DNA of 56,418 nt, taken from the NCBI GenBank assembly GCA_011390345.1, contig JAABSP010000029.1, forward strand, positions 1-56,418, read 5' to 3'. Both the position numbers and the translations under genes were made by a program. Source of the DNA: Desulfobacteraceae bacterium. GTDB lineage: Bacteria; Desulfobacterota; Desulfobacteria; Desulfobacterales; JAABSP01. Shown here piece by piece: positions 3,100 through 53,835 of the stretch. The notes below the pieces were generated by a model that did not search any database, was not told where the DNA came from, and saw nothing but the letters and a program-made list of their open reading frames with translations. Positions within the stretch are counted from its first letter, which is position 1, and each line of letters opens with the position of its first letter.

Positions 3100-5082
3100 A
3101 TGAGCGACAGATCAATAGCTTTCAACCAGCCATCGGCATTGATCGTCGAGGATAATCCTTTCAACCGGGAACTGTTGAAAAGGGTTTTGAATGCCCAGAA
3201 CCTTCAGGTGATGGAGGCAAAGAACGGGAAGGAGGCGCTTTCGATGATCCGCGTCCATCCCTTCACCATGATCTTCATGGATCTTCTCATGCCCGGCATG
3301 GACGGCTACGAGACCATCGAGCGGATCCGGCGGATGGGGGTCCAGACCCCGATCATCATTGTCTCCTCCATGAGTTCCAAAGAGGATCGACGCCGCTGTC
3401 TGGATGTGGGGGGGGATGAATTTCTGCCCAAACCCATCGATGCCAGACTGCTCAGAGACATTGCCGAAAGATATGCCGCGGGCCGGCCCGCGGACAAGCC
3501 CGGAGACGGGCCCCCTCTCCCCGCCAATGGAGAGAAGGAGTATCCGGTTGAAAAGCAGAGTCTCTCCCTCTCCTCATTTTCGGCCCTGCTGGTGGAGGAG
3601 GACCGGGAGCGGGCCCTTCGCTACAAGCGGTTTCTGGAGGCGCGGTTCATGGAGGTCGCGCATGTGGCCAACGGGGATCAGGCCATTGCGATCTTTGAAA
3701 AGAACCGGCACCGGTTCCGGATCATCGTCAGCAACATCTTCACCACCGGCATCGACGGGCTCGGAGTGCTGGCCCGTTTCAAGCGGGAGTATCCGGATGT
3801 TTTCTTCTTCATCTATGCCGATGAATACGATGCGGATGCGTTTCAACTCGCGGTTCAACTGGGCGCGGACGGGGTCTTGACGGCCGACCGGTTCGAGGAG
3901 GCCATCGAAGGGATGATCGAATCCGCGATCTTTCAGGCGGGCCAGCGGGGCTCCCGGCTCCAGAGCGCTTCCACGGCCACCCAGGTCCGCCAGGCCCAGG
4001 CCCATCTGATCCGCCAAGGCTGCAGCTCCAACTGCGGCCTGATGAACATCGCCTATTCCCCCCTCTCCGATGCCGGAGGGGATATCGCGTGCTGCAGGCG
4101 ATTCAACCTGGCGGGCCGATGCGGGGTCTTTTTAGGGGATGTTGCGGGCCACAATGTGCTGAGTTCCTATGTCAGCGCCTTCTATATGGGGATTCTGACG
4201 GCCAACTGGGGGGCCAACCAGCGGCCCCGGGAGCTGCTGAAGATGATCAACAGCGAGCTGAACCGCTCCGACTATGACCAGTACCACCTCTGTGCAAGTG
4301 CGCTCCTCTGGGATCAGCGAAGGGGAACCCTTCGGATCGCTTCGGCAGGTAATCCGGGCCCTCTGGTGGTTCGGCCCCAAAATGGGGAAAACCGGATCAT
4401 CCGGGATATGGAGGGCGGCGGCATGTGCCTGGGGCTGCTGGATGATGAGGATCTTTTCCTCTCCGATCTATTCTCCTTTGATCCAGGGGATTACCTCTTC
4501 ATCTTCTCGGACGGGATGGAACGGAGCCGGCTCATCGAGCTGCTGACCTCGGACAGCGATATCCTCCGGGGGACTCTTGGGGAGATCGGCCAGCGGATAG
4601 TTGACCGGACCATCGAACGCTGGGGACAGGAGGATGATATGATCCTGATCACATTGAAGGCCCCCTATCCGGATCTTTTAGTGGAAAATGGCCGCCATTT
4701 CTCCTTTTCCGACGGCTATAAAGGGGTGGACAGAGCCTGCGGTTGGGTCCGTCAGACTCTGGAGGAGAAGGGAAGGCCCGTGGACCGGGATCTCTATCTT
4801 GTGATGATTGCGGTCCGGGAAGCCCTGATCAATGCCGTCTGCCACGGCAACCGGATGGTGCCGGGGGCATATGTGGATCTGGCTCTTCTCTTTGAAGCGG
4901 ACCGGTTCTGCATCCGGGTATCCGATGGCGGGCCCGGGGTCGATCTTCCCCGGGATCTGGTACGGATCGAGGAGATCGATGTCCTCCAGACCGGGGGGCG
5001 GGGGATTTCCGCGATGCGATCCATTGCCGACGAAACCACTGTGGAAGGGGGAACCCTGACCATCTGTTTCAATGACCGATAA
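3100..5082 (+). CDS. Dual-receiver SpoIIE-type phosphatase with C-terminal anti-sigma-like HATPase
   Basis: A 660-residue cytosolic signalling protein. Domains in order: receiver 1 (about 12-128, phospho-acceptor Asp61 in FMDLLMPGMDG), receiver 2 (about 160-280), SpoIIE/PP2C phosphatase (about 320-515, with DAGGD, GDVAGH, SDGMERS and EDDMIL metal-binding motifs) and an RsbW-like HATPase (about 525-660, N-box EALINAVCHGN, G-box SDGGPGVD). Receiver 2 has Asn212 where the acceptor Asp should be, so it is probably not phosphorylated. Such proteins usually set the phosphorylation state of a STAS protein, and one is encoded immediately downstream (5113). First gene of the chemosensory operon; AGAGGAAGG lies somewhat far (13 nt) before the ATG. 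Confidence 0.92.
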   Translation: MSDRSIAFNQPSALIVEDNPFNRELLKRVLNAQNLQVMEAKNGKEALSMIRVHPFTMIFMDLLMPGMDGYETIERIRRMGVQTPIIIVSSMSSKEDRRRCLDVGGDEFLPKPIDARLLRDIAERYAAGRPADKPGDGPPLPANGEKEYPVEKQSLSLSSFSALLVEEDRERALRYKRFLEARFMEVAHVANGDQAIAIFEKNRHRFRIIVSNIFTTGIDGLGVLARFKREYPDVFFFIYADEYDADAFQLAVQLGADGVLTADRFEEAIEGMIESAIFQAGQRGSRLQSASTATQVRQAQAHLIRQGCSSNCGLMNIAYSPLSDAGGDIACCRRFNLAGRCGVFLGDVAGHNVLSSYVSAFYMGILTANWGANQRPRELLKMINSELNRSDYDQYHLCASALLWDQRRGTLRIASAGNPGPLVVRPQNGENRIIRDMEGGGMCLGLLDDEDLFLSDLFSFDPGDYLFIFSDGMERSRLIELLTSDSDILRGTLGEIGQRIVDRTIERWGQEDDMILITLKAPYPDLLVENGRHFSFSDGYKGVDRACGWVRQTLEEKGRPVDRDLYLVMIAVREALINAVCHGNRMVPGAYVDLALLFEADRFCIRVSDGGPGVDLPRDLVRIEEIDVLQTGGRGISAMRSIADETTVEGGTLTICFNDR

Positions 5083-5431: not shown

Positions 5432-8400
5432 ATGTCTGATTTTGATGAGCTTCTTCCGGCATTTATCGAAGAGTCCCAGCAGCATCTCCAGCAGATCGAG
5501 CCGGATCTTCTTGCTCTGGAGAGCGAAGGCTCGGCCCCTGACACTGAAACCGTCAACAGGATCTTCCGGGGGATTCACAGCATCAAGGGGGCCTCGGGCT
5601 TTTTCGGGTTCGCCAATATCGGCCGGCTGAGCCATCTCATGGAGAACAGTCTGGCCCTGCTCCGGGACGGGAAGATCACCCTCTCGCCGGATCTCGTCGA
5701 TGCCCTGCTTTCGGGCCTGGATGCCCTCAAGTCCATGCTGGAGGACATCGTGGGGAGCGAGACCTTTGACATCGAGACCCAGGCCGCATTCCTCCAGAGG
5801 CTGATCGACGACCATGCCCGGGATCGGACCACCGTGACGGTTTCGGAAAAGGCCGCACCTGCCGGGGAGAAGGCCGAGAGCGCACTGAAAAAGTTCGATA
5901 TCTCCGAGGCCGACATCCGCCGGTTCGTGGAGCGGGATCTTTTCCTGTATGCCGTCACAATCTTTTTGAACGCGGACATCCGGAAGAAGAACAAGACCCC
6001 CTTCGACTTTATCAAGAATATGGAGGCCGGGGGCCAGTATGTCGATTCCTTTCTCGATATCCGGAGTGTGACGGGCCTTTCCGACTGTCTCGAAAACGAG
6101 CTGGGCTTTGATTTCATCTTTGCAACGGAACTGGAGCCGGATGCCGTCTCCCAGACCCTGGATCTGCCCCCGGCGCAGATCACGCCCATCGATCTTTCGG
6201 AACATCAAAAGGAAAAAGCAGCCGAGGCCCCCCAGGAAACCCCGGCAGAACCATCAGAAGCAGAATTATCAGAAGAAGAGCAGGCCGAGGCGATTCCCGA
6301 AGCTGCTTTCAGACAACCATCGGCAGAGAAGGAACCTTCAACTGCAAGCCCCGAACCGACAGGCGCGGAACGCTTCCGGGAGATGATCCATACCGAGGAG
6401 AAGATCCGGGTGGGGGTCAACTTTTTAAACGAGCTGGTCAACCTGGCCGGAGAGCTGGTGCTGGGCAGAAACCAGCTCATGCAGACCGCACTCCCCCTGA
6501 CCAAGACCGCGCCGAACCTCTCCTCGGTTCTCCAGCACATCAACCGGGTCACTTCGGAGATGCAGGAGAAGATCATGCAGATGCGGATGCAGCCTCTCTC
6601 CCTGATCTTCGACAAGTTCCAGCGGGTGGTGCGGGATCTGGCCCGAAAGCACGAAAAAGAGGTGCGCCTCTCGGCATCGGGAGGGGATGTGGAGCTGGAC
6701 AAGACCATCATCGAGGGCCTGTCAGACCCCCTGAACCACCTGATCCGCAATGCCGTGGACCATGCGATCGAGCCCCCGAAAGAGCGGGAAAAGGCAGGAA
6801 AACCCCGGTTTGGGACCATTCGGATGCGGGCATTTCACCAGGGGGGACAGGTGCATTTGAGCATTTCCGATGACGGCAGAGGGATCGACGGAGACCGGGT
6901 GGGGGAGAAGGCCGTTGAAAAGGGGGTCATCACAGCCGATCAGCTCAAGGAGATGTCGCCCCGGGAGCGGGTGCGCCTCATCTTCCGGCCCGGCTTCTCC
7001 ACCGCGGAGCAGGTCACGGATCTGAGCGGCCGGGGCGTGGGCATGGATGTGGTGATCACCAATATCGAGCATCTGGGCGGAACCGTGGACATCGAGACCC
7101 ATCCCGGAAATGGGACCACCGTAACCCTGATCCTCCCCCTGACCCTGGCGATTATCTCGGGGCTGCTCATCACGGCCCGAGATCACTATTTCATACTGCC
7201 GGAGGTGGATATCGACGAGCTGGTCCGGGTGAAGCCCGAGGAGATCGACCGGCGGATCGACATCATCCAGGATGCATGGGTGCTGCGCCTGCGGGAGACG
7301 CTGCTGCCGCTGGTGGATCTCAACCGGATGCTCAATCTCGGTGATGATCGAAAAATGGAGGATCGAAAACCGGGCAAAGAATCCCAAATAGAACCGGGCA
7401 AGGAATCGGCCCAAAAACCTTCCCCGATTCCGGCAAAGGCCCGCCTGAAGGAACGGAACCGGCCTCTGCGGATTCTGGTGATCAAACATAGCGGGGCCAA
7501 GTACGGCCTTCTGGTGGACCGGATCGTCAACACCGAGGAGATCGTTGTCAAGCCCCTGCCCCGATACCTCAAAAAGATGCAGTCCTTTTCCGGCGTCTCC
7601 ATTCTGGGCAATGGCCGGGTATCTTTGATCCTGGATGTATCCGGGATTGTCAAAAAGGCGGCCGTGCGGAGCCTGGAAAGCGTCATCGATCAGACCGAGA
7701 CCGAAGAGGAGCGGGTACGGGAGAAGGAGACCCAGACCCTGCTGCTCTTTGACAACAATACCCCGGAGCGGTTTGCACTGCCTTTGGAGCTGATCCGGCG
7801 CATCGAAAAGATCCCGGCCTCCCAAATCGAGACCATCAAAGAGAAGCAGTTTCTCCAGTATCAGGACAAAAAGCTCCGTTTGATCTTTCTGGAGGATTAT
7901 CTGCCCGTGGCCCGTCCAGAGCGCACCCCGGACGACATCCTCGGCATCATCGTGCCCAAGCAGATGAAATATCCCATGGGAATCGTCTTTCACCAAGTGA
8001 TCAACACCGTGGCCGCATCGGTCTCCCTGGATACGGAGACCATCATGGGGCAGGGGCTTTTCGGCTCTGCGGTGCTCGATGGCCGGATTACACTGCTTCC
8101 TGACATCTACACCCTCTTTGAGCTGGCCGCGCCCGAGTGGTATTCGACCAAACGTGCGGAGGGATCGGGTCCGCAGCGGAAATACCGTGTGCTGCTGGCC
8201 GAGGATACCTCCTTCTTCCGGATGGTGGAGAAGGAGTACCTGGAATCGGCCGGATATGAAGTGCTGATCGCGGAAAACGGGGCCGTGGCCCTCCGGATCC
8301 TGGAGGAGGAGACCGTGGATGCTGCCATTCTGGACATCGTCATGCCGAAGCTGGACGGATGGGGAACCATTGCGGCCATCCGGGGGGATGACCGGCTCAA

Positions 8401-8581
8401 GAACCTTCCGGTGATGGCCGTCACCTCTCTGGGGGACGAGGGAAAGAGCAGCAATCCGATGAGGGAGAGGGGATTTGAGGCCGGGTTCGACGAATGGGAG
8501 ATGAAGCTCAACAAGACCAGTCTTCTGGAAAAGCTGGCCGCGCTCATCAAAGGAAAACGGAAAAAGGGAGTCCTGTCATGA
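5432..8581 (+). CDS. cheA: Hybrid chemotaxis histidine kinase CheA with two CheW-like domains and a C-terminal receiver
   Basis: A 1049-residue cytosolic kinase of the chemosensory array. An N-terminal Hpt domain carries phospho-acceptor His49 (IHSIKGASGFFGF). A possible P2-like region spans about 148-260, followed by an acidic linker (about 265-310). The dimerisation helix begins near 320; HATPase motifs are HLIRNAVDHAIEPP (about 433), SDDGRGIDG and GRGVGMDVV. A CheW-like P5 domain starts near 566 and contains a charged insertion (about 637-685); a second, divergent CheW-like segment covers about 770-905. The receiver occupies about 916-1040 with acceptor Asp in LDIVMPKLDGWG. This is much longer than E. 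coli CheA (about 650). No free CheY is encoded here, so the attached receiver may be sink or output. Confidence 0.95.
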   Translation: MSDFDELLPAFIEESQQHLQQIEPDLLALESEGSAPDTETVNRIFRGIHSIKGASGFFGFANIGRLSHLMENSLALLRDGKITLSPDLVDALLSGLDALKSMLEDIVGSETFDIETQAAFLQRLIDDHARDRTTVTVSEKAAPAGEKAESALKKFDISEADIRRFVERDLFLYAVTIFLNADIRKKNKTPFDFIKNMEAGGQYVDSFLDIRSVTGLSDCLENELGFDFIFATELEPDAVSQTLDLPPAQITPIDLSEHQKEKAAEAPQETPAEPSEAELSEEEQAEAIPEAAFRQPSAEKEPSTASPEPTGAERFREMIHTEEKIRVGVNFLNELVNLAGELVLGRNQLMQTALPLTKTAPNLSSVLQHINRVTSEMQEKIMQMRMQPLSLIFDKFQRVVRDLARKHEKEVRLSASGGDVELDKTIIEGLSDPLNHLIRNAVDHAIEPPKEREKAGKPRFGTIRMRAFHQGGQVHLSISDDGRGIDGDRVGEKAVEKGVITADQLKEMSPRERVRLIFRPGFSTAEQVTDLSGRGVGMDVVITNIEHLGGTVDIETHPGNGTTVTLILPLTLAIISGLLITARDHYFILPEVDIDELVRVKPEEIDRRIDIIQDAWVLRLRETLLPLVDLNRMLNLGDDRKMEDRKPGKESQIEPGKESAQKPSPIPAKARLKERNRPLRILVIKHSGAKYGLLVDRIVNTEEIVVKPLPRYLKKMQSFSGVSILGNGRVSLILDVSGIVKKAAVRSLESVIDQTETEEERVREKETQTLLLFDNNTPERFALPLELIRRIEKIPASQIETIKEKQFLQYQDKKLRLIFLEDYLPVARPERTPDDILGIIVPKQMKYPMGIVFHQVINTVAASVSLDTETIMGQGLFGSAVLDGRITLLPDIYTLFELAAPEWYSTKRAEGSGPQRKYRVLLAEDTSFFRMVEKEYLESAGYEVLIAENGAVALRILEEETVDAAILDIVMPKLDGWGTIAAIRGDDRLKNLPVMAVTSLGDEGKSSNPMRERGFEAGFDEWEMKLNKTSLLEKLAALIKGKRKKGVLS

Positions 8582-9084
8582 ACCGACAGATCGCGACATT
8601 TCAGCTCGACGACAACCTGCTGGGGGTCGATATCCTTCTGGTCAAGGAGGTTTACCGACACATGTCCATAAGCCCGATCCCGGACGCACCGCCCCAGTTG
8701 AAGGGATTGATGAACCTCCGGGGCCGGGTCGTCACCGTCATCGACCTGAAGGTCTGCCTCAACCGCCCATCTACGGAACAGGTGGACGACAGCCGGCTGC
8801 TGATCTTCAAGACCGAAGAGGAGATCCTCGGATACCGCCATCGGGCCGGCCTGGATGGAGTTGAATTGGGAGAGGACATCGTGGGATTTCTCATCGATCG
8901 GATGGATGAGGTGGTGACGGTGGAGACCGATGAGATTCTGCCCCCGCCCCCCAACCTTACCGATATCGAAGAGGATCTGATCCAGGGCGTGATCAAACAG
9001 GGGGAGCATCTGCTGATTCTGCTCGATGTAACGGCCGTGCTCGAGAAGGTGATGCGGGCCGCGGCCGGGAAAAAGGAGGGGTAG
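8578..9084 (+). CDS. cheW: Chemotaxis coupling protein CheW
   Basis: A 168-residue scaffold protein that couples MCPs to CheA. The conserved LKGLMNLRGRVVTVIDL segment, the signature of CheW, is intact. The ATG at 8578 overlaps the cheA stop (ATGA), which points to translational coupling; a GGGAG lies upstream. The protein is slightly longer than E. coli CheW owing to an insertion around residues 75-95 (after VDDSRLLIFKTEEE). It is followed six bases later by the first MCP gene. Confidence 0.94.
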   Translation: MNRQIATFQLDDNLLGVDILLVKEVYRHMSISPIPDAPPQLKGLMNLRGRVVTVIDLKVCLNRPSTEQVDDSRLLIFKTEEEILGYRHRAGLDGVELGEDIVGFLIDRMDEVVTVETDEILPPPPNLTDIEEDLIQGVIKQGEHLLILLDVTAVLEKVMRAAAGKKEG

Positions 9085-9090
9085 AAACAG

Positions 9091-11037
9091 ATGTCGATTC
9101 TCGGGGATTTGGGTCTGAAAAAGAAGCTGGTGGGCGCTTTTTTGATTATTGCGGTGATTACGGCCGTTGTGGGCATGATCGGTCTCTATTCGGTAAAGCG
9201 CACCGGCATCTTCGGGGTCCGGGTAGGGCAGCACCTCTCCTCTCAGATGGATGCGATCATGGAGGCCAAACTGGCCGTGACCCAGGCACACCTCTGGTTC
9301 GAGGAGATCCTCTCCGGCGACAACGAAGAGGATATCGAAGATGTCTGGCGGCTCTTTGACATGGCGATCTGGTATTGCGATGCGATCCTGGAGGGGAGCC
9401 AAGAGGATCAAAACATATATTCCGCAACAGAGAGCCCGGAGGTTCGAAAAGGCGTGGAAGCCCTCAAAGCCGAGATCAAAATACTGGTGCAGAATGCCCA
9501 CACCCGGTATGCGGGCCGAGGGGATGCCGCTTCCGGAATGTGGACCGGCGGCGATGCGGACCAGCAGTTTGACAAGCGTTTTGAACATCTCATGGAAATG
9601 GCCGATGCCGTGGAAGCTCTGGTGGTCCGGAATATGACTCAGGGTATCGAAGATCTCCATGAAGGGATCAAAGATGCCTCGATATGGATGTGGATCATCA
9701 CCCTTGCCGCGTTTCTCTTTGCAGTACTTCTGGGGCTGACGGTGGCCCGCGGGCTGATCGTCCCGATCCTTTCGGTGAAGAATCTTTCGGAAAAGCTGGC
9801 GGCCGGGGATCTGACGCAGCACGCGGATGTCACCGGATCGGACGAGGTGGGCCGTATGGCCACAAGCCTCAATCGGGCAGTACAGAGCCTCAAGGAGATG
9901 ATGATGGAACTCCAGCGGGTGATCGAGGATATGGCCGCATCCTCCCAGGAGATGGCAGCGGTCTCGGCGCAGATGGCCGGGTCCGCAAACCGGCTCAAGG
10001 ATCGGACCGTAAAAGCCGCGTCCGAATCGAACAGCATCGCGGCCAATGTGGATCAGGTGGCGGCTTCGGCCCAAGGGGCCAGCCGATCTGCCGAAGCGGT
10101 TTCCGACCTGATCCGGCAGATCTCTCAAACCTTTGCGGAAGTGGCCGACTCCAGCCGAAAGACTTCGGCCAATGTCTCCCGGATGGCCGGGGCCAACGAG
10201 GAGATCTCGGGGCAGATATCATCGGTCTCGGCCGCAGTCGAGGAGATGTCGGTCTCATTGAACGAAGTGGCCCGCCACACAGCGGAATCGAGCCGGATCT
10301 CCCGGGATGCCGGAAAGCAGACCGTGGAGATCGACGGCAAGATGAAGATCCTGGTGAAAGCCTCCCAGCAGATCGGCAAGGTGGTGACGCTGATCAAGGA
10401 TCTTGCTGATCAGACCAACATGCTGGCGCTCAATGCCACCATTGAAGCGGCCGGCGCGGGGGAGGCCGGAAAGGGGTTTGCCGTGGTGGCCGGGGAGGTC
10501 AAGGCATTGGCCCGGCAGTCCGCGGAGGCCGCGTCCGAGATCGCCGACGAGATCGATCATATCCAGACCGCGATCGATGATGCAGCCGGTTCCATCCAAG
10601 CCATCAACGAGATCATCGAAAAGAGCGGTTCCATTAGCGAGATGATCGCCTCCTCGGCAGAAGAGCAGACCGCAACCGCGAACGAGATCGCAAAATCGAT
10701 CTCCGGGGCCGCGGCCAGGCTGAAGGAGACTGCGGAGAATGCGGCCGAATCCTCGGATCTGGTGGGGGGGATTGCCCGGTCTATGGACAATTCCTCCCGG
10801 GCTTCGCAGAACAGCGCAAAAAGCATCGAGGAACTGCTGGAAAACATACGAACTGTAGCCCTTTCGGCACAGGAGGCCTCTTCCGGCGTCAATCGCGTCT
10901 CCGAGACCATCAAAGAGATCAGCATTACGGCCCAGGAGACCGCAAGCGGCGCAATTCAGACCAACGCCTCTTCCAATGCGCTGGCAGAGACATCCTCCCT
11001 GCTGGCCCGGATCGGAGGCCGTTTTCATATCGGATGA
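9091..11037 (+). CDS. Methyl-accepting chemotaxis protein (MCP 1 of 3)
   Basis: A 648-residue transmembrane chemoreceptor: TM1 about 13-33, a periplasmic region about 35-200, TM2 about 205-228, a HAMP domain ([18 protein letters not shown] region) and a long cytoplasmic coiled coil. The hairpin tip reads [18 protein letters not shown] followed by [16 protein letters not shown]. At the tip the usual EAARAG Arg is Gly, as in the other two MCPs here. No C-terminal NWETF-like tether for CheR/CheB is present. The gene is in the chemosensory operon, directly after cheW. The periplasmic ligand is unknown; the sensor region resembles a four-helix bundle but this is only inferred. Confidence 0.93.
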
Positions 11038-11065
11038 ACCCCCTTTTTTTTTAAAGGAGAGATCA

Positions 11066-13369
11066 ATGGTAAAATGGTTTAAAAATCTGAAAATCGGTAA
11101 AAAAATCGGGGTGACATTTTTTCTGCTCCTCCTCATTGCCCTCATTCTGGCCTGGATTACCATCGAAAATCTCAAAGATGTGGAAGAATCCTCTGTGCGT
11201 CTTGCCCGGGAATATGCCCCGGAAGTTGCGGAGGCCGGGAGCCTGGAGCGGAACAGCCTGATGACCATGTACAATATGCGCGGATACGGACTCTCCAATG
11301 AGGCGCGGTATTTGAACGAGGGGCAGGAGTATCTGAAAAAGGTCCAGGAGGATATTGAAAGTGCCAAGGAACTGGTGGCCAGATATCCGGATCTTACCAA
11401 ACTCAAAGAGCAGATCGTAGATGCGGAATCGGCCGTGAACGATTACCGGGATCTGGTGGAGAAGACCGTGGCCCGGAACAGCGCGATTTCCGAGAACCGG
11501 GAGAATCTGAACCGAGCCGCAGAGCGGTATATAGTCAATGGCCAGGAGTCTCTTGACAATCAGTTTGCAACTCTTTCCCAAGAGATCCTGTCCGGTTCCG
11601 ACACCCCGGCCCTGATCGAGCGGATCGAAAAGGTGCGGCTGCTGACCCGCCTCATCAATCAGGGCAACGAGATCCGGGTGGCCAACTTCAAAGCCCAGGC
11701 CCTTGGGAACCCGGAGATGCTTCAGGAGGCTTTGAAACAGTTCGCCCTGATCCACGAGATCCTAGATGGCCTGATAGCAACTAGCCGCCAGGACAATAGC
11801 CTGCGCCGGATCCAAGAGATCGACGCCGCGGCCGAAAACTATGAGGCAGCCATGAAGAACCTCTTGGAGAACAGCGCCGCGTTGAGCCGGCTCAATGAAC
11901 AGCGGGATGAGACGGCCCGCCGGGTTCTGGAAATCGCCCAAAGCACCTTCGAGGCCGGGATGGATCGCATGCAGGAAGTCTCAGAGGAGACCGTAACCCT
12001 TGTGAATGAGAGCACCCTGACCCTGTGGATCGGGCTGATCGCGGCCGCGCTCATCGGGACGGCCATCCTGATCATCCTGACCCGGCTCATCACTGCGCCC
12101 ATCTACCGCATATCGGCCTTCACCCGCCGGTTCGGCCAGGGGGATCTGTCTGAAGATCTCGACATCGACACCAAAGACGAGATCGGCGGGATGGCAAGTG
12201 ATCTCAACAGCTCCGTGGGCAGCCTCCGGGAGATCCTGCGGCAGCTCTCGGATAACACCAACTCCCTGGCCGGCTCCTCTGAGGAGCTTTCGGCCGTATC
12301 CGCGGAGATGGCTGCATCGGCTGAGGAGATGAACTCCCAGGCCGACACCGTGGCCGCGGCCTCGGAGCAGGTGAACGCGAGCGTCGGCATGGTCGCATCG
12401 GCCGCGGAAGAGTCCAACGCGTCGGTATCCGGCATCGCGGCCATGACCGAGGAGATGTCCTCCACCTTTGAGAACGTGGCCAGAGCCAGCCGGAAGACCT
12501 CGGAGAATGTGGCGGAGATGGCCGGCTCCGGGGAGCAGATGTCCAAACAGGTCGATTCCGTGGCCTCGGCAGCCGAAGAGATGACCGCATCCCTGAACGA
12601 GGTGGCCAAAAACACGGTAAAGGCGAGCCGGATCTCCCAGGATGCCAAGGAGAGAACCAAAGAGATCGACATCCGGATGGATGCCCTGGTCAATGCCTCG
12701 AAGCAGATCGGCAAGGTGGTCGGGGTGATCAAGGACATCGCGGACCAGACCAACATGCTGGCGTTGAACGCCACGATAGAGGCGGCCGGGGCCGGCGATG
12801 CGGGCCGGGGATTTGCAGTGGTGGCCGGGGAGGTCAAGGAGCTGGCCCGGCAGTCTGCGGACGCGACCGACGAGATCGCGGATCAGATCGATCAGATCCG
12901 GCGCTCCACAAATGATGCAGTATCGGCCATCGAAGAGATCAACAGCATCATCGAAAACATCGCGTCCATCAACGAGATGATCGCATCATCTGCCGAGGAG
13001 CAGACAGCGACCGCCGGCGAAATCTCCAAATCGGTGGCGGCCGCGGCCGCAACGGTAAAGAATGTGGCGACAAATGCAACGGAATCCTCGCAACTGGTGG
13101 AGGATATCGCCCGGTCCACGGACGAGGCCTCCAAGACCGCAACCGAAGTGGCCCGGAACATAGACGAGCTGCTCAACGGCATCAAGGAGGTGGCCAGAGC
13201 TTCGGATGAGGCATCCCGAGGAGTCAATGACATCTCCATGAATATCCAGAACATCAGCGAGGCGGCCCGGCAGACCTCGGAGGGCGCATCCCAGACCGAC
13301 CAATCCTCCCAGGAACTCTCTGAAATGGCGCAGTCTTTGGCCCGGATCGTGGATCGGTTCAAATTGTAA
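11066..13369 (+). CDS. Methyl-accepting chemotaxis protein with long helical periplasmic sensor (MCP 2 of 3)
   Basis: A 767-residue chemoreceptor. TM1 covers about 14-36, the periplasmic region about 37-335 is almost all helical and long enough for a helical bimodular (HBM) sensor, TM2 about 338-362, then HAMP and the signalling coiled coil with tip [18 protein letters not shown]. The start at 11066 has AAAGGAGA upstream; an earlier in-frame ATG at 10976 lies inside the preceding MCP and gives a proline-rich leader, so it is rejected. HBM sensors in other bacteria bind small organic acids, but the assignment here rests on length and helicity only. Its signalling half is very close to that of MCP 3 at 51532. 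Confidence 0.93.
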
Positions 13370-47479: not shown

Positions 47480-48673
47480 TTATCGAGGAATACGCATCCA
47501 TCGGATGCCCCGGATCAGGAATAGAAGCCCTGCAAGCGCCATGACCGCGGCGATTCGGCAGACCATTTCGATGCCCCCGAAAATCCAGATCGAAGAGCCC
47601 AGGGCAGCGCCGCAGAAGCGCCCCGCACTGGCCGCTGCAAAATAGCCGGCCATCATGGTGGCCCGGGCCCCGGGAAGAACCTCGGTAAAAAAGGAGAGAG
47701 CCACCACAATGGCAAACTCCACAAAGAGAAAAAGCAAGAAGATGCCCCCCAGGGCAAAGGGCAGGGATGCCCCCATCAGGGGAAGCAGGAGATATGCCCC
47801 GGCCGTCAGCATCGCACCGCCCACCAGGGAGCGCTCCAGGCCGATCCTGTCAGCCAGAGCCGCGGCCACCCCTTCTCCGGCCAGTTCGGCCGCACCGATC
47901 ACAGTGGTGGCCGCGCCGATAGAGACGATGGTGAGACCAAATGACCCCTCCAGCCAGACCCCGTAGATCACAAAGAAGGCGTCGCTGGCCCCGTTGAAGA
48001 GAAAGGCAAAGGCCAGGGCCGCCATCGCGGGACGGTTCTGACGGATCATCTTCAGGTTTTCAAGAAGTCCGGTTCGGCGCTGGCCACTCTCGGCCCGGGG
48101 AGGCTCCGCAGAGACCAGCAGCCAGAGCAGAACGGCCATCAGGAGGGCAGCGGCTCCCAGCGCGAAAAACGGCGCGCGCCATCCAAAGCGGTCGATAAGA
48201 ATCCCGATCAGAGGAATCCCGATGAGGCTGCTGCCGGCCCAGCTCACCTCCAGCGCGCCCACGGCCATTCCCCGCCGTTTGTAGGGAACCCGGCTCCCCA
48301 CATATCCGAGAATGGCCGGATCGAACATGGCCTTGCCGACACCGGCCAGAAAGAAACCGGCAAGTACCGCGGCATAGACCGGAACCAGACCCGCGAGAAA
48401 CATTCCAGCGGTCAATACCCCCAGCCCGCCGATAAACAGAAACCGGTGTCCCCACCGGTCTGCCAGGGGCCCGAAGATCAGGCTCAGGGTGCTGGTGAAC
48501 TGATTGACCGCGATGATGAGGGTTACGGCCGTCAGCTCCACCCCCAGTCCCCGGCTCAGCACCGGGGCAAAAGGGTAGATGAAGCGTCTGGAGGTGTTGA
48601 GAACAAGCCTTCCGGCCGCAGCGGCCGATACCTGAAGAATGAGGCTTCGATAGCTTTTGCCCGATTCTGTCAT
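47480..48673 (-). CDS. MFS family transporter
   Basis: A 397-residue protein with about 12 membrane helices. The MFS motif A region is FGPLADRWGHRFLF (between TM2 and TM3), and the second half repeats it weakly (ADRIGLERSL). RFIYPFAPVLSRGLG at the N-terminus and GYVGSRVPYKRRGMAVG are typical of the group. The substrate is unknown. The ATG at 48673 overlaps the stop of the PQQ-type protein (ATGA), so translation is coupled; a GTG at 48712 is an alternative. Confidence 0.88.
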   Translation of the reverse strand: MTESGKSYRSLILQVSAAAAGRLVLNTSRRFIYPFAPVLSRGLGVELTAVTLIIAVNQFTSTLSLIFGPLADRWGHRFLFIGGLGVLTAGMFLAGLVPVYAAVLAGFFLAGVGKAMFDPAILGYVGSRVPYKRRGMAVGALEVSWAGSSLIGIPLIGILIDRFGWRAPFFALGAAALLMAVLLWLLVSAEPPRAESGQRRTGLLENLKMIRQNRPAMAALAFAFLFNGASDAFFVIYGVWLEGSFGLTIVSIGAATTVIGAAELAGEGVAAALADRIGLERSLVGGAMLTAGAYLLLPLMGASLPFALGGIFLLFLFVEFAIVVALSFFTEVLPGARATMMAGYFAAASAGRFCGAALGSSIWIFGGIEMVCRIAAVMALAGLLFLIRGIRWMRIPR

Positions 48674-50247
48674 GGAAGGATTGAAAACCGGTTCAGGCTT
48701 TTGATGAAGCACATGGGATCATTCTCCTCCACCGTCACGATCACCGAATCGGTATCGGTGCGCCCGCCTTTGCCCGTTACCGTCAGCTCGAAAGCCAGCG
48801 TAATTTCCTCTTCATGGTCCAGGTCCGGGGCATTAAAATAGGCTCGGGCCGTATCTGAATCTTCCAGGGTAACAGTGGAACCGTCGGTCTGCCGCCACTG
48901 GTATGTCGTGATCTCCTCTTCCGGAGATCCGGAGCCGGAAAGGGTGACGCGGTCCCCCTCTTCGGCAGTGAAATCCTCCCCGGCATCCGCAACAGGACCG
49001 GTTTCATCATCCGCGTCATTATCGGTTTCATTATCGGCATCATCATCATCGGTCCCATCATCTGAGTCTGTGCCGTCGCCATCATCTGCCTGGTCTGTCC
49101 GGTCTGCCTGATTGGTATGGCGGGCATCATGGCCGAACATGGGCCAGGCCGAATCTGCCGGCCCTGTAGCGCCGGTCTCCACCGCATAGAGAACCCCATC
49201 GGTCCCCCCGACATAGAGGGTCCCATCCGATGCGATTACCGGGGCCGACTCCCCCGCGGGGATCGCCTTGTCCCAGCGGGAATTTCCCGCGCTGTCCACC
49301 GAGTGCAGATTTCCTTGGGCATCTCCGAAATAGAGATTGCCGGCACTGTCCACGGCCGGTACATTCAGAATCGCGCCCCCTGCGGAGACCCGCCATCGCT
49401 CATCTCCGGTATCCATATCCACGGCATAGAAGAGGCCGCCGTCAGTACCGACATAGACCGCGCGGTCGGCCCCGACAGCAGGGGAGGCCACTGCGCCCCC
49501 GGCCGGAAAGCCCCACAGCATCTCGCCGTCATCGGCAAACGCGTATAAAGTTCCGTTTCCGGAGCCGACATAGATATTCCCCGCGCGATCGAGGGCCGGC
49601 GATGAGACCCGCCCCCCGGTCTCCTGTCGCCAGCGCTCGGTTCCGTCAGGACGGACCGCATAGAGATACCCGTCTTCGGAGCCCACATAGATATCCCCCT
49701 CCCTGCCGATGGCCGGAGAGGAGAGCCTTCCGGCCGTGGGAAAGGACCAGAGAAAGGTCTCCTCTTCGACCGCATAGAGCCTGCCGTCCGATGCGCCCAC
49801 ATAGATCCTTCCGTCATCTCCGAGAGCTGGTGTGGAGATCTCCCCGGAGCCGAGCGCGAGTTCGAGCAGCAGGTTCCCGCCGGCATCGAAGCCGTAAAAC
49901 CGGCCGTTGGAAGATCCCATATAGACGGTTCCGTCCGATCCGACCGCGGGGGAGGGTTGGGTCAGCATGCCGCTGATAAAGACCTCAAAAAGCTTCTCCT
50001 CCTCGCCGCCGATCCAGTAGAGCCATCCATTGTCCGATGCGGCATAGACGGTTCCGTCGGTTCCCACCGCAGGGGAGGACTGAAAAGGGCTCTGGGCCGT
50101 AAAACGCCACAGGATATCGCCGGAATCGGCCCCGGCCCGCCCCCTGGTCAACATCAATAACAGAATCATCACCAGCATCATTATCAGGGGGATCGAGGCC
50201 GAAAAAGGTCGGCGGATCGGTCCAACCGGTATGCCATTTGTTCCCAT
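48670..50247 (-). CDS. Exported PQQ-like beta-propeller protein with PKD/REJ-like domain
   Basis: A 525-residue secreted or membrane-anchored protein. Signal or anchor: SIPLIMMLVMILLLMLTRGR. Then eight propeller repeats of the PQQ-binding-like (BamB-like) type, each with SSPAVGxDGTVYxGSxNGxLYA, for example TPALGDDGRIYVGASDGRLY. WPMFGHDARHTN, a common sign of these propellers, follows. An Asp-rich linker (TDSDDGTDDDDADNETDND) leads to an Ig/PKD-like domain with GPVADAGEDFTAEEGDRVTL. Repeats resemble extracellular binding proteins; no catalytic site is seen. ATG 50247 has AGGAG; the longer frame to 50385 is rejected. Confidence 0.88.
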   Translation of the reverse strand: MGTNGIPVGPIRRPFSASIPLIMMLVMILLLMLTRGRAGADSGDILWRFTAQSPFQSSPAVGTDGTVYAASDNGWLYWIGGEEEKLFEVFISGMLTQPSPAVGSDGTVYMGSSNGRFYGFDAGGNLLLELALGSGEISTPALGDDGRIYVGASDGRLYAVEEETFLWSFPTAGRLSSPAIGREGDIYVGSEDGYLYAVRPDGTERWRQETGGRVSSPALDRAGNIYVGSGNGTLYAFADDGEMLWGFPAGGAVASPAVGADRAVYVGTDGGLFYAVDMDTGDERWRVSAGGAILNVPAVDSAGNLYFGDAQGNLHSVDSAGNSRWDKAIPAGESAPVIASDGTLYVGGTDGVLYAVETGATGPADSAWPMFGHDARHTNQADRTDQADDGDGTDSDDGTDDDDADNETDNDADDETGPVADAGEDFTAEEGDRVTLSGSGSPEEEITTYQWRQTDGSTVTLEDSDTARAYFNAPDLDHEEEITLAFELTVTGKGGRTDTDSVIVTVEENDPMCFIKSLNRFSILP

Positions 50248-50284
50248 CTTTTCTCCTATTCCGAAAAACAGTAACAATAACTCA

Positions 50285-50313
50285 TTGACACAGAAGGGGC
50301 AACGCCATACATA
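50285..50313 (+). promoter_or_regulatory. Candidate sigma70 promoter
   Basis: TTGACA (50285-50290) is a perfect -35 match, followed after 17 nt by TACATA (50308-50313), a weak -10. It points to the eight-repeat protein at 50472. A small inverted repeat CTGAT-TAT-ATCAG is at 50342-50354 downstream. Confidence 0.3.
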
Positions 50314-50471
50314 GGTAGGGTGTCCTCGCGCAAAGAGTGGACTGATTATATCAGTATCAGAATGCGGGGACAATCCAAAAGTCATCGGCTTTGCACGAAT
50401 AAAACAGCAGAAGAGAAGAAGAATCGGAAAAGACTCAATCGAAAACCGCAGTTATGGAAGAGGAAGAAACG

Positions 50472-51497
50472 ATGCTGACCCCCCGTCTCCCCCAAAACCT
50501 TTCCCATCGAAGATTCATACCGCATCCCCGGGGCATTTCAATGCTCATCGCCGGGCTGCTCTTCATCGGGATCTCCGGATTGGCCATCGGGGCCCATGCC
50601 CCGTCCGCATGGGCCGAGGAATCGAAAACAACGCCGGATCAGGTCTATTCCGTGATGGATCTTTCCGAACAGATTCTACAGACCTTGTTGCAGGCCAAAG
50701 GCATTGAACCGGAACAGGATCTGCGGCTGATGGAATTCAACCTCAGCCCGATCCACGCCTACCAGATGGCTGTTGCAGTGATCGATCTGCTCATCGATTA
50801 CGAAAAGGAACTCGGCCTTCGGCCCATGCCCAACGTGGTGGCCACCCCCATGGACTATACCCCGGCAGATGTAAAATTTCTGGCCGACATGATCCTTGCA
50901 GAACTCCAGCGGGTTCTTTCTTCGCTTTCGGTGGCGGACTTCAACCAGTATCCGAGCCGATTTACCGCAAAAACCCCCACAGATGTCTTCGACATCAGTC
51001 TGAGCCTCTTTGTAAAGATCGGCATTCTTGCAGACCGGGAAAGGATCACCCCGAGCCAGGTCTATCCCCAGATGGTCCGGGCCGCAGCCGATGTCCGTTC
51101 CATTCTGGCGCACATCGATCCGGCCCGCCGGTACCGGATCGATGCACCGGTGAGTCCGGGCGGCCTCACCCCGGCAGATGTCTTTGCCGAATGTCTGAAG
51201 ATCAGAGCTGACATCAACGACCTCAAAGAGAAGATGGGCCTTTCGGTCCTCACGATTCCCAACATCGAAACCGATCAGAAGCTCCACCCGGCCGATGTCT
51301 TCATCCAGACCCAGATCATCATCGCGGAACTCAACCTGCTAAAAATGGCCACCGGAACCATCAGCGCCACGCCCCTGGCGGTTCCGGTATCGAAAAAGAG
51401 CCCCTCCGATGCCCACCAGCAGGCCGGGATGGTCCGGTACCTGCTCAAGCAGATCCTGTCCCTGCAGGAGATGAAAAAAACTCTGGCCGGTCAGTGA
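50472..51497 (+). CDS. Exported protein of eight ~38-residue repeats, unrecognised
   Basis: A 341-residue protein with a signal peptide (hydrophobic 24-41, cleavage after AWA, about 48). The rest is a repeated unit beginning with a Pro-Asp type motif: TPDQVY (54), SPIHAY (92), TPADVK (130), TPTDVF (168), TPSQVY (193), TPADVF (233), HPADVF (272) and SPSDAH (310), each followed by an amphipathic helix ending in EL-x2-L-like positions. Spacing is 38-40 except one of 25. I know of no family for it. ATG 50472 is preferred to 50454 because AGAGGAAG precedes it. An MCP gene starts 34 bp downstream. Confidence 0.75.
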
Positions 51498-51531
51498 TGC
51501 GATCTTAAAAGATTTCGATTTGGAGAAAATT

Positions 51532-53835
51532 ATGTTCAAAGACCTGAAACTCAGCTTGAAAATGGGCATTGGCTACGGGCTTGTGGGGCTTCTCCTTGCT
51601 GCTGCCGTGGCTTTCACCCTCTGGCAGACCGAGCGGACAGAGACGATCGTGGACCGGCTGACCGATATGCGATCCCCCACTGCACAGGCCAGCCTGATGC
51701 TGCTGAATGGCATCAACCATTCCCTCTCCTCTCTGCGGGGATGGATCATTCTGGGCAATGAATCCTTTCGGGAGGAGCGAAAGGCCGCATGGGAAGAGAG
51801 TATCGATCCGGCTCTGGAGACCCTGAGACGCCTCTCCCCGGTCTGGACCGAGGCTGAAAACCTTCAAAGGCTGCAAAAAATCGACACCCTCATGGAAAGT
51901 TTCCGCAGCAATCAGGAGGAGATCGAAGCCATCGCCCAGACCTTGGAGAACACCCCGGCCAGCAAAATCCTGTTGGAGGAAGGCGCTCCCCTGTCGACAC
52001 AGCTCACAGATGCCATAACCGCGATGATCGATATCGAAGCCAACCTGGAGGCGACGCCGGAACGTAAGGCACTGCTGGGGATGATGGCCGATATCCGAGG
52101 CTCCATCGGCCTCAGCGTCGCAGATATCCGGGCCTATCTGATCACCGGAAACGACCAGTTCAAACGCCTGTTCAACGAACACTGGAAAACCAACGAGAGC
52201 AATGTGGCAAGGCTCGACAATGCCAGAGATCTGCTCACACCGGAACAGCTTCGCCACTTTGCCGATTTTCTGGCGGCGAGGGAGAAATTCCTTCCCCTGC
52301 CCCAGAGGATCATGGAGATCCGGGGGGGCAACGACTGGAATCTGGCCCGGGCCTGGATGGGAGAGCGGATCACCCCAATGGTCGATACAATTACCGGGGA
52401 GCTGAATGCAATGCTCAGAATCCAGCAGACCCTGATGCATGCGGAGCAGGATGATCTGAAGGCCCAGACCCGGTTTCTAAAGATTGTGGAGTGGATTCTC
52501 CTCTTCGGCGGAATCGGGGTCTGCCTGATCGCGGGCATCACCATCACACGATCCGTGACAGGCCCCATCAAAGAGGCGGTCCGGGTGGCCGAACACCTCT
52601 CCCAGGGGGATCTGACCGTATCATTTGGCGCGATGTCCAAAGATGAGACGGGCCAGATGCTCCGTGCGATGAAGCAGATGGTTGAAGGGCTGCGCAACAT
52701 CATGGAAGAACTCTCCAGCACCACCGGAAACCTATCCAGCTCGGCCGAGGAACTTTCTGCGGTATCGGATCAGATGGCCTCTTCCACAGAGGAGATGAAC
52801 TCCCAGGCCCAGGAGGTCTCCGGGGCCTCCCGTCAGGTCGCGGCCAGCGTCTCTTCGGTCGCGGCCGCGACCGAGCAGTCGAGCGCTTCGGTGTCGAGCA
52901 TCGCGGCCATGACCGAGGAGATGTCCTCCACCTTCTCCGGCGTGGTCAGCTCTGCGGAGCGGACATCGGCAAATGTTTCGGAGATGGCCAGGGCCGCGGA
53001 TGATCTCTCCGAAGTGATGCATTCGGCCGCGACATCCGTGGAGGAGATGACCATATCCCTGAATGAGGTGGCCAAACATACGGCCAAAGCCGATACCATC
53101 TCCCAGAACGCCAACCGGCGGGCCGAGGAGATCAATCAGCAGATCCAGGGGCTGGTAACGGCTTCGACCCGGATCGGCAAGGTGGTGGAGCTGATCAAGG
53201 ACATTGCGGACCAGACCAATATGCTGGCCCTCAACGCGACCATCGAGGCGGCCGGGGCCGGGGATGCGGGCCGGGGCTTTGCCGTGGTGGCCGGAGAGGT
53301 CAAGGAACTGGCCCGCCAGTCCGCGGAGGCCACAGGGGATATCGCGGGCCATATCGATGAGATTCAAAAGACCACCGATGAGACTGTCCGCTCGATCGAG
53401 GAGATCATCCGGACCATTCAGGAGATCGCGGACATCAACGGCTCCATCGCAAGCTCTGTTGAAGAGCAGAGCACCGCGGCCAACGAGATCTCCAAATCAG
53501 TGGCCAGAAGCGCGGCCACCGTCAAGGAGGTGGCGCAGAACGCGGGGGAATCGTCAGATCTTGTGGACGAGATCGCCAGATCCACCGCAGAGAGCGCATC
53601 GACCGCTCAGGAGGTGGCCCGCCATGTGGATGAGTTTTCAACCGGTGCAAAATCGATGGCACATAGTTCCGAGACCGCATCCCACAAAGTCGAAGAGATT
53701 TCCAGAAATATCGACGGCATCGGCCAGGCCACAGAGGAGACAGCAAGGAGCGCCGTTCAGATCCGTCTCTCCTCCCAGGAGCTGGCCCAAATGGCTGAAG
53801 CCCTGACCCAGATCGTTCAACGGTTCAAGATCTGA
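51532..53835 (+). CDS. Methyl-accepting chemotaxis protein (MCP 3 of 3)
   Basis: A 767-residue chemoreceptor. TM1 about 12-30, a long helical periplasmic region (about 31-320; includes [13 protein letters not shown] and [13 protein letters not shown], similar repeated motifs suggesting two related helical bundles), TM2 about 324-342, HAMP, and the signalling coiled coil whose tip is [18 protein letters not shown]. Its signalling half is highly similar to MCP 2. ATG 51532 follows GGAG by six bases. It follows the eight-repeat exported protein closely, so the two may form a sensory pair. Confidence 0.93.

What the first reader, a model, noticed from the sequence alone, without database searches (positions are those of the whole stretch)
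50472..53835. Eight-repeat exported protein paired with a chemoreceptor
The sequence shows a signal peptide followed by eight units of about 38 residues that each start with a Pro-x-Asp/Gln-Val-Tyr/Phe-like motif. No known domain explains it. An MCP with a large periplasmic sensor starts 34 bp downstream on the same strand. Inference: the repeat protein is a periplasmic ligand-binding or scaffold partner of MCP 3, a receptor-partner arrangement I have not seen described.
Basis: partly seen in the sequence, partly recalled or inferred. Interest (0 to 1): 0.62.

Follow-up and report, generated by a model that had tools for sequence, protein, structure and literature searches.

The report
Helical-repeat partner of membrane receptors
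An exported protein built from eight copies of one small helical unit belongs to an apparently undescribed family whose genes nearly always sit beside genes for signal-receiving membrane proteins, which suggests a clip-on helper that lets bacteria sense their surroundings.

Summary
ORF 50472-51497 encodes a probably exported protein with eight [STH]PxxV/A units; a 767-aa chemoreceptor follows after 34 bp. No Pfam or NCBIfam model reaches its cut-off in it, and no PDB fold matches its AlphaFold2 model at E 0.001 (pLDDT 80, pTM 0.77). The eight units are two homologous four-unit modules.

Relatives occur in at least two classes of one phylum. Of 25 loci with readable flanks, 24 have a signal-transducer gene beside the repeat gene, 23 of them directly downstream on the same strand. 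The transducers are chemoreceptors, histidine kinases or GGDEF(-EAL) proteins, each with two hydrophobic segments around 265-300 residues. The repeat-protein tree follows sensor type (2 changes) better than output (4). The window's sensor has the McpS/PilJ/TorS type of fold; TorS is controlled by a periplasmic protein, TorT.

Best reading: a new family of periplasmic co-receptors, tied to the sensor and indifferent to the output. The interaction is inferred, not shown. In one genus a four-unit module is fused to the cytoplasmic end of a chemoreceptor.

The parts
50472..51497 (+). eight-unit helical repeat protein, probably exported (341 aa; alternative start at 50454)
50472..50615 (+). signal peptide, cleavage guessed near AWA|EE
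   Evidence: hydrophobic segment; no dedicated signal-peptide predictor was available
50625..51047 (+). four-unit module 1 (units at residues 60, 98, 136, 174)
51048..51494 (+). four-unit module 2 (units at residues 199, 239, 278, 316), homologous to module 1
51498..51531 (+). 34-bp spacer with GGAG before the receptor's ATG
51532..53835 (+). methyl-accepting chemotaxis protein: hydrophobic segment - all-helical sensor - hydrophobic segment - HAMP - MCPsignal
51598..52500 (+). receptor's sensor region as modelled (S1 type), McpS/PilJ/TorS-like fold

Best explanation
The protein is a periplasmic co-receptor. After export, its two four-unit helical modules dock on the extracytoplasmic sensor domain of the receptor encoded just downstream, and its own state (bound ligand, or contact with another periplasmic component) sets the receptor's signalling state. 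Because it acts through the sensor domain, it works with any cytoplasmic output: MCP in the window, histidine kinase or GGDEF protein elsewhere. Shown by computation: repeat architecture, conserved gene pairing, agreement of repeat-protein lineage with sensor type across output swaps, the sensor's fold class. Inferred: export, binding, ligand relay, direction of the effect.
For: 24 of 25 loci with readable flanks have a transducer gene next to the repeat gene, 23 of 25 as the next gene downstream on the same strand. Six of those 23 pairs overlap by 4 bp (L021, L034, L108-L111) and eight more are 8-34 bp apart. In 23 of 23 partners read in full, two hydrophobic segments enclose about 265-300 residues, i.e. 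a large extracytoplasmic domain. Chance adjacency to an MCP is roughly 1%: 38 MCP matches in the 4.79-Mb own genome (gene number estimated). The S1 sensor is shared by MCPs, a HisKA_2 kinase (L022; BLASTP E 2e-14) and GGDEF proteins (L108-L110; HMM E 2e-33 to 6e-33, not in the training set), each with the repeat gene directly upstream. On the repeat-protein tree sensor type needs 2 changes (the minimum for three labels) and output type 4. Pairwise identities of sensor and repeat protein correlate at r 0.97 over 9 pairs, 1 of 5000 permutations as high. The window sensor's best PDB matches are McpS, then PilJ and TorS; TorS is controlled by TorT, and indirect ligand binding is reported for receptors with several kinds of sensor domain, HBM and dCache among them (PMC6321045, passages). 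In G214 (unlinked) and G034 (both genes at contig ends) an S1-MCP exists on another contig.
Against: No interaction, ligand or phenotype is shown. S1 receptors also occur where no repeat protein was found in the genome (G009, G049), so the partner is not obligatory or was missed in incomplete MAGs. G014 has an S1-MCP whose only repeat protein found belongs to another subtype beside another MCP. One repeat gene (L019, G214) has no transducer neighbour. A four-unit module fused to MCPs in genus g37 lies on the cytoplasmic side, so the module is not intrinsically periplasmic. The mirror-tree correlation is not corrected for the species tree. Five of the 8 genomes in which S1 and an S1-type repeat protein coincide helped define S1, so that coincidence is partly circular. 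Output type is itself clustered on the tree, and 2 against 4 changes is a modest difference.
Confidence: 0.57

Rival explanations
1. The repeat protein is a tonic inhibitor or tether of the receptor, as YfiR is for the diguanylate cyclase YfiN: it holds the receptor off until something in the envelope pulls it away. No small ligand is bound.
For: It explains pairing with MCP, kinase and GGDEF outputs equally well. YfiR is a soluble periplasmic repressor of a membrane diguanylate cyclase and is sequestered by an outer-membrane protein (PMC3375315, passages). The window pair is followed by mltG and a GH3 N-acetylhexosaminidase-like gene.
Against: No third gene is seen to recur beside the pair in the ORF tables, by eye; no search for an outer-membrane third partner was run. 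No relative of the window's mltG or GH3 gene was flagged in the loci tabulated.
Confidence: 0.2
2. The repeat protein is a dedicated chaperone or clustering scaffold that stabilises or orders the receptor's periplasmic domains without sensing anything.
For: ToxS is thought to act by protecting its receptor from degradation (PMC9214523, passages). Tandem helical units suit scaffolding.
Against: S1 receptors exist in genomes where no repeat protein was found. Sensors with little or no recognisable sequence relation to S1 also have it.
Confidence: 0.13
3. The repeat module is a general ligand- or protein-binding fold of signalling proteins, usable in either compartment; the exported form is one of several uses and the adjacent sensor is only a co-regulated neighbour.
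For: A four-unit module is fused C-terminally, hence cytoplasmically, to MCPs in 7 of 10 genomes of genus g37 (7 of 86 of the family).
Against: Adjacency in 24 of 25 loci, gene overlaps and the tree's agreement with sensor type go beyond co-regulation.
Confidence: 0.08
4. Chance neighbours and a lineage-specific hypothetical protein without a signalling role.
For: None beyond the lack of experimental data.
Against: Adjacency in at least two classes, with 38 MCP and 12 GGDEF matches in the whole 4.79-Mb own genome.
Confidence: 0.02

Closest known systems
TorT-TorS (and LuxP-LuxQ, XylFII-LytS, MBP-Tar): periplasmic binding proteins that act on receptors
   Same: Soluble partner acting on the extracytoplasmic domain of a receptor; the window's sensor domain resembles the TorS/McpS/PilJ helical fold; TorT binds TorS with and without ligand (PMC6321045, passages).
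   Different: TorT and its like are periplasmic binding proteins with an alpha/beta fold (recalled). This protein is modelled as all-helical, made of tandem one-helix units, with no match above threshold in Pfam, NCBIfam or PDB. Its partners include MCP, kinase and GGDEF outputs.
YfiR-YfiN(-YfiB)
   Same: Soluble periplasmic regulator of a membrane signalling enzyme (PMC3375315, passages).
   Different: No Pfam model reaches its cut-off in the window repeat protein; no recurring third gene was noticed; outputs are not limited to GGDEF.
VtrA/VtrC, ToxR/ToxS co-component systems
   Same: Two-gene cassette, genes partly overlapping, an input protein with a membrane-tethered output protein (PMC9214523, passages).
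   Different: Those outputs are transcription factors and the VtrC input is lipocalin-like; here the input is modelled as an all-helical repeat protein and the outputs are MCP, kinase or GGDEF(-EAL).
HBM-domain chemoreceptors (McpS, PF16591) and PilJ
   Same: The receptor's sensor: Foldseek E 5e-05 to McpS, VIA Z 15-16 to PilJ, McpS and TorS.
   Different: 4HB_MCP_1 reaches its Pfam cut-off in the window receptor; PF16591 is not listed.

Membership tests
Methyl-accepting chemotaxis protein (downstream gene) | MCPsignal domain with HAMP behind a membrane-spanning sensor | tested here: met
   PF00015 145.4 bits (cut-off 34.6), PF00672 43.1 bits (cut-off 25); hydrophobic segments at 7-31 and 314-342
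HBM / McpS-TorS-PilJ helical sensor fold (receptor's sensor) | Two stacked helical bundles in the periplasm | tested here: inconclusive
   AlphaFold2 model pLDDT 83.7, pTM 0.59. Foldseek: McpS E 5.4e-05, TMt 0.55; PilJ 9.2e-03; TorS 2.2e-02. VIA: PilJ Z 16.0, McpZ 15.4, McpS 15.3, TorS 15.3, but unrelated human TTYH3 and TTYH1 score 15.3 and 15.2 in the same list and rmsd values are 6-8 A. Fold class likely, not proven.
HBM (PF16591) | Pfam model above its cut-off | tested here: not met
   not among the families with E up to 1 for the window receptor
Periplasmic binding protein (TorT, LuxP type) | alpha/beta two-lobe fold | tested here: not met
   the model has helices only, no strand; no such family in Pfam scans
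Periplasmic co-receptor acting on a sensor domain (functional class) | Exported | tested here: inconclusive
   N-terminal hydrophobic segment above 1.6 (19 aa) in 19 of 23 members, a later one in 2 of 23; the four below are L019, L025, L080, L108. A stricter test passed 13 of 23. No signal-peptide predictor or experiment.
Periplasmic co-receptor acting on a sensor domain (functional class) | Gene conserved beside a receptor gene | tested here: met
   24 of 25 loci with readable flanks
Periplasmic co-receptor acting on a sensor domain (functional class) | Binds the sensor domain | not testable with these tools
   no complex prediction or assay available
Co-component system (VtrA/VtrC) | membrane-tethered transcription factor with a lipocalin-like input | tested here: not met
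   outputs are MCP, HisKA/HisKA_2 or GGDEF(-EAL); the input model is all-helical
Known helical repeats in Pfam (HEAT, WY and others) | Pfam repeat model above its cut-off | tested here: not met
   window protein: only PexRD54_WY, 17.9 bits against a cut-off of 27. Of 16 members 3 match that model, best E 4.6e-05; cut-offs are not printed for members other than the first.

The most novel reading that the evidence does not exclude
A new module, four tandem helix units of about 38 residues, is a general clip-on sensing domain of bacterial signalling. It is exported in 8- or 16-unit form to act on helical or Cache-like sensors of chemoreceptors, kinases and c-di-GMP enzymes, and in one genus it is fused singly to the cytoplasmic end of a chemoreceptor. 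It would be a co-receptor class unrelated to periplasmic binding proteins, defined by which sensor it pairs with and indifferent to output.
Probability: 0.4. Interest if true: 0.82.

Novelty: new variant of a known kind. Interest (0 to 1): 0.67.

Why it matters
A review of bacterial receptors states that the few indirect-binding mechanisms known may reflect the difficulty of identifying them, not rarity (PMC6321045, passages). If this family is a co-receptor, purified receptor domains of these bacteria could fail in ligand screens because the ligand-binding part is a separate protein. The repeat HMM gives a direct way to list receptors that have such a partner, and the output swaps (MCP, kinase, GGDEF) are natural chimeras for testing it.

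Tried and rejected
Known family: Pfam and NCBIfam scans of the window protein gave nothing at its curated cut-off. Scans of 16 family members gave weak Pfam matches (PexRD54_WY in 3 of 16, best E 4.6e-05; seven other families in 1 of 16 each; cut-offs are printed only for the first member) and no NCBIfam match at E 0.01. PexRD54_WY is treated as a helical look-alike. PDB by sequence with the 9-row profile: best E 0.31. Fold: Foldseek PDB 81 matches up to E 10, none at 0.001; viral library 91 matches, none at 0.001; VIA second look best Z 5.3 to a fumarase-type helical bundle, 4.3 A over 114 residues, taken as a common helical arrangement. Absence from these libraries does not prove a new fold; no library of predicted cellular structures was available.

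Phylum search with the first profile: 3 of 395 genomes, own included. The genome search scores a limited number of candidates per genome, so misses are possible.

Rows dropped: L026 (E 0.0068, a CoA-transferase-like ORF, treated as chance), L009 (repeat gene cut by the contig end on its downstream side) and the cytoplasmic fusions are not among the 25 loci. L111 (repeat gene reduced to 154 aa) is in the 25 but not in the tree. L109 and L110 are nearly identical, so the 25 loci are not 25 independent events. Neighbour starts were taken as the longest open frame; for L025, L079 and L105 the receptor's first hydrophobic segment lies 46-142 residues into that frame, so their true starts are probably later and the overlaps that one search prints for L079 (4 bp) and L105 (80 bp) are not relied on. 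L008's 4-bp overlap holds only if its GTG is the start.

Signal-peptide check: a first, stricter test (15-aa window, no later hydrophobic stretch) passed only 13 of 23, since amphipathic repeat helices exceed it. The 19-aa test is quoted as well.

Papers: seven searches over open PMC text; none of the titles or abstract starts shown describes this protein family. This is a statement about those listings only; subscription papers and preprints are not held. Passages only were seen of PMC8534201, PMC9214523, PMC6321045 and PMC3375315; no paper was read whole.

Full report
Observation. The ORF at 50472-51497 (ATG behind GAGGAAG) has a hydrophobic N-terminus and eight motifs of the form [STH]PxxV/A-[YFHK], spaced 38, 38, 38, 25, 40, 39, 38. 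Shuffles of the mature part gave 0.055 motifs on average and never more than 2 in 20,000. The receptor gene begins, by the ATG behind GGAG, 34 bp after the repeat gene's stop.

What the repeats are. A repeat HMM trained iteratively on the family itself finds 8 units at the same register in the window protein, in 4 of 4 full-length close relatives (L006, L019, L007, L020) and, within one residue or two, in the kinase-linked L022. L040 matched at 6 of the 8 positions, and the L023-L025 group shows 7 units with another spacing. In the long members (617-635 aa: L021, L033, L034) 13, 15 and 13 units are recognised, with spacings that fit two eight-unit blocks in tandem. Units 1-4 align with units 5-8 over 138 of 141 columns (hhalign E 9e-25 with 16 rows, 2e-12 with 7 rows), so the basic block is a four-unit module. 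Among 702 ORFs of the loci fetched by then (some loci overlap), the repeat HMM at E 0.1 hits only the repeat proteins and three MCPs. The AlphaFold2 model from 7 sequences has pLDDT 80.4 and pTM 0.77, one helix per unit and no strands. Nothing above threshold was found in Pfam or NCBIfam for the window protein, in PDB by sequence, or in PDB and viral models by fold; the VIA second look peaks at Z 5.3.

Where it occurs. Own genome included, homologues were found in 5 of 58 relatives, in 12 of 389 genomes of the class with the single protein (one of them, G264, judged chance), in 16 of the 389 by profile (three of these are the MCP fusions), in 3 of 395 of the phylum and in 9 of 125 genomes of a second class; genome contigs gave 6 named contigs.

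What surrounds it. I read the neighbourhood of the clear hits whose flank was available: 25 loci (window, L006, L007, L008, L019-L025, L033, L034, L040, L079-L081, L104-L111). In 23 of 25 the next gene downstream on the same strand is a signal transducer. In L024 an MCP lies upstream and CheA downstream. L019 alone has none. The genes overlap by 4 bp in L021, L034 and L108-L111, by 1 bp in L033, and are 8-34 bp apart in the window, L007, L020, L022, L040, L104, L106 and L107. By Pfam or phmmer the partners are MCPs (window, L006, L007, L008, L020, L023, L024 upstream, L025, L079, L080, L081; with hemerythrin in L040 and L107), histidine kinases (L022, L033, L104-L106) and GGDEF or GGDEF-EAL proteins (L021, L034, L108-L111) (Pfam; phmmer only for L006, L007, L008, L020 and L024, and for L110 and L111). 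In 23 of 23 partners read in full (L007 is split and shows the first segment only) two hydrophobic segments enclose about 265-300 residues: every partner has a large extracytoplasmic domain. The own genome has 38 MCP matches and 12 GGDEF matches, so chance adjacency to one of these is of the order of 1%; kinases were not counted.

It follows the sensor. The window receptor's sensor ('S1') is found with three outputs: MCP, HisKA_2 kinase (L022; 22% identity over about 300 residues, E 2e-14) and GGDEF (L108-L110, HMM E 2e-33 to 6e-33; these were not in the model). Another branch has Pfam's HK_sensor_dom_bact / dCache-like sensor, again with kinase and GGDEF-EAL outputs. On a maximum-likelihood tree of 27 repeat-protein rows, three sensor labels need 2 changes, the minimum possible (0 of 200 shuffles as low), whereas output labels need 4; shuffles were not run for output. 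The third label, M3, is defined as an MCP without a clear S1 match (best E 0.0017), so its coherence is partly definitional. S1 itself is paired with two separate branches of the tree. Sensor and repeat-protein identities correlate at r 0.97 over 9 pairs (1 of 5000 permutations as high), not corrected for species phylogeny. A search for S1 itself found strong hits (E below 1e-50) in 11 of 389 genomes. The 8 genomes of that set with an S1-type repeat protein (G000, G001, G002, G021, G034, G214, G232, G315) are all among them, but 5 of these defined the model. G034 (both genes at contig ends) and G214 (genes on different contigs) are the more independent cases. G009, G014 and G049 have S1 without an S1-type repeat protein found; the upstream flanks of the S1 genes in G009, G014 and one of two in G049 are cut by contig ends at about 80-550 bp.

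What the sensor is. The model of the sensor region (pLDDT 83.7, pTM 0.59) matches McpS best (Foldseek E 5e-05), then PilJ (9e-03) and TorS, including the TorS-TorT complex entries (2e-02). VIA gives Z 16.0 for PilJ, 15.4 for McpZ, 15.3 for McpS and TorS, but unrelated human TTYH proteins reach 15.2-15.3 in the same list, so the fold class is likely and not proven. TorS is controlled by the periplasmic protein TorT, and HBM and dCache receptors are among those reported to use binding proteins (PMC6321045, passages; PMC8534201, passages).

The awkward case. In genus g37 (7 of its 10 genomes, 7 of 86 of the family) a four-unit module is found; in the three proteins read in full (592-627 aa) it follows an MCPsignal domain. 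P0005 has two hydrophobic N-terminal segments with about 8 residues between them, P0006 one, so there is no sizeable periplasmic domain. Profile comparison to units 1-4 gives probability 96.1, E 3.7e-09. A C-terminus behind MCPsignal without another membrane segment is cytoplasmic. This fusion supports a functional link between module and receptor but shows that the module is not tied to the periplasm.

Mechanism. I commit to a periplasmic co-receptor: exported, docked on the sensor, passing a signal into whatever output is attached (0.57). A YfiR-like inhibitor or tether (0.2) and a receptor chaperone or scaffold (0.13) are not excluded. Shown by computation: architecture, pairing, sensor-linked phylogeny. 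Likely: sensor fold, export. Inferred: binding, ligand, sign of the effect.

Novelty. The principle of a periplasmic partner is known. A helical-repeat family doing it across MCPs, kinases and c-di-GMP enzymes was not described in the listings of seven literature searches, which cover open PMC papers only. I file it as a new variant of a known kind, carried by an apparently undescribed protein family.

Noticed in passing
L082:8904-10688, L083:8763-10541, L084:8827-10710: MCPs of genus g37 carry a single four-unit repeat module at the cytoplasmic C-terminus and have no sizeable periplasmic domain.
   Followed up: partly
L040:5976-8441, L107:1146-3578: Repeat-protein partners that are S1-type MCPs with a C-terminal hemerythrin domain.
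   Followed up: no
L111:7734-8198: The repeat gene is reduced to 154 aa while the downstream GGDEF-EAL gene looks intact.
   Followed up: no
L007:13609-15308: The S1-type MCP behind the repeat gene is split into two overlapping reading frames, a real disruption or an assembly error.
   Followed up: no
window 5432-13369: A hybrid CheA (Hpt-HATPase-CheW-REC) followed by two MCP genes; with the REC/SpoIIE gene at 3100 this looks like a chemosensory cluster elsewhere in the same window.
   Followed up: no
window 48670-50385 (-): Divergent PQQ/BamB-like beta-propeller with a PKD domain directly upstream of the repeat gene; no relative was flagged in L006, and the upstream side of L008 is cut.
   Followed up: partly
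L023:5988-14498, L024:6214-15858: In two genomes the repeat gene sits inside a large chemosensory cluster with several MCPs and a CheA-like gene.
   Followed up: partly
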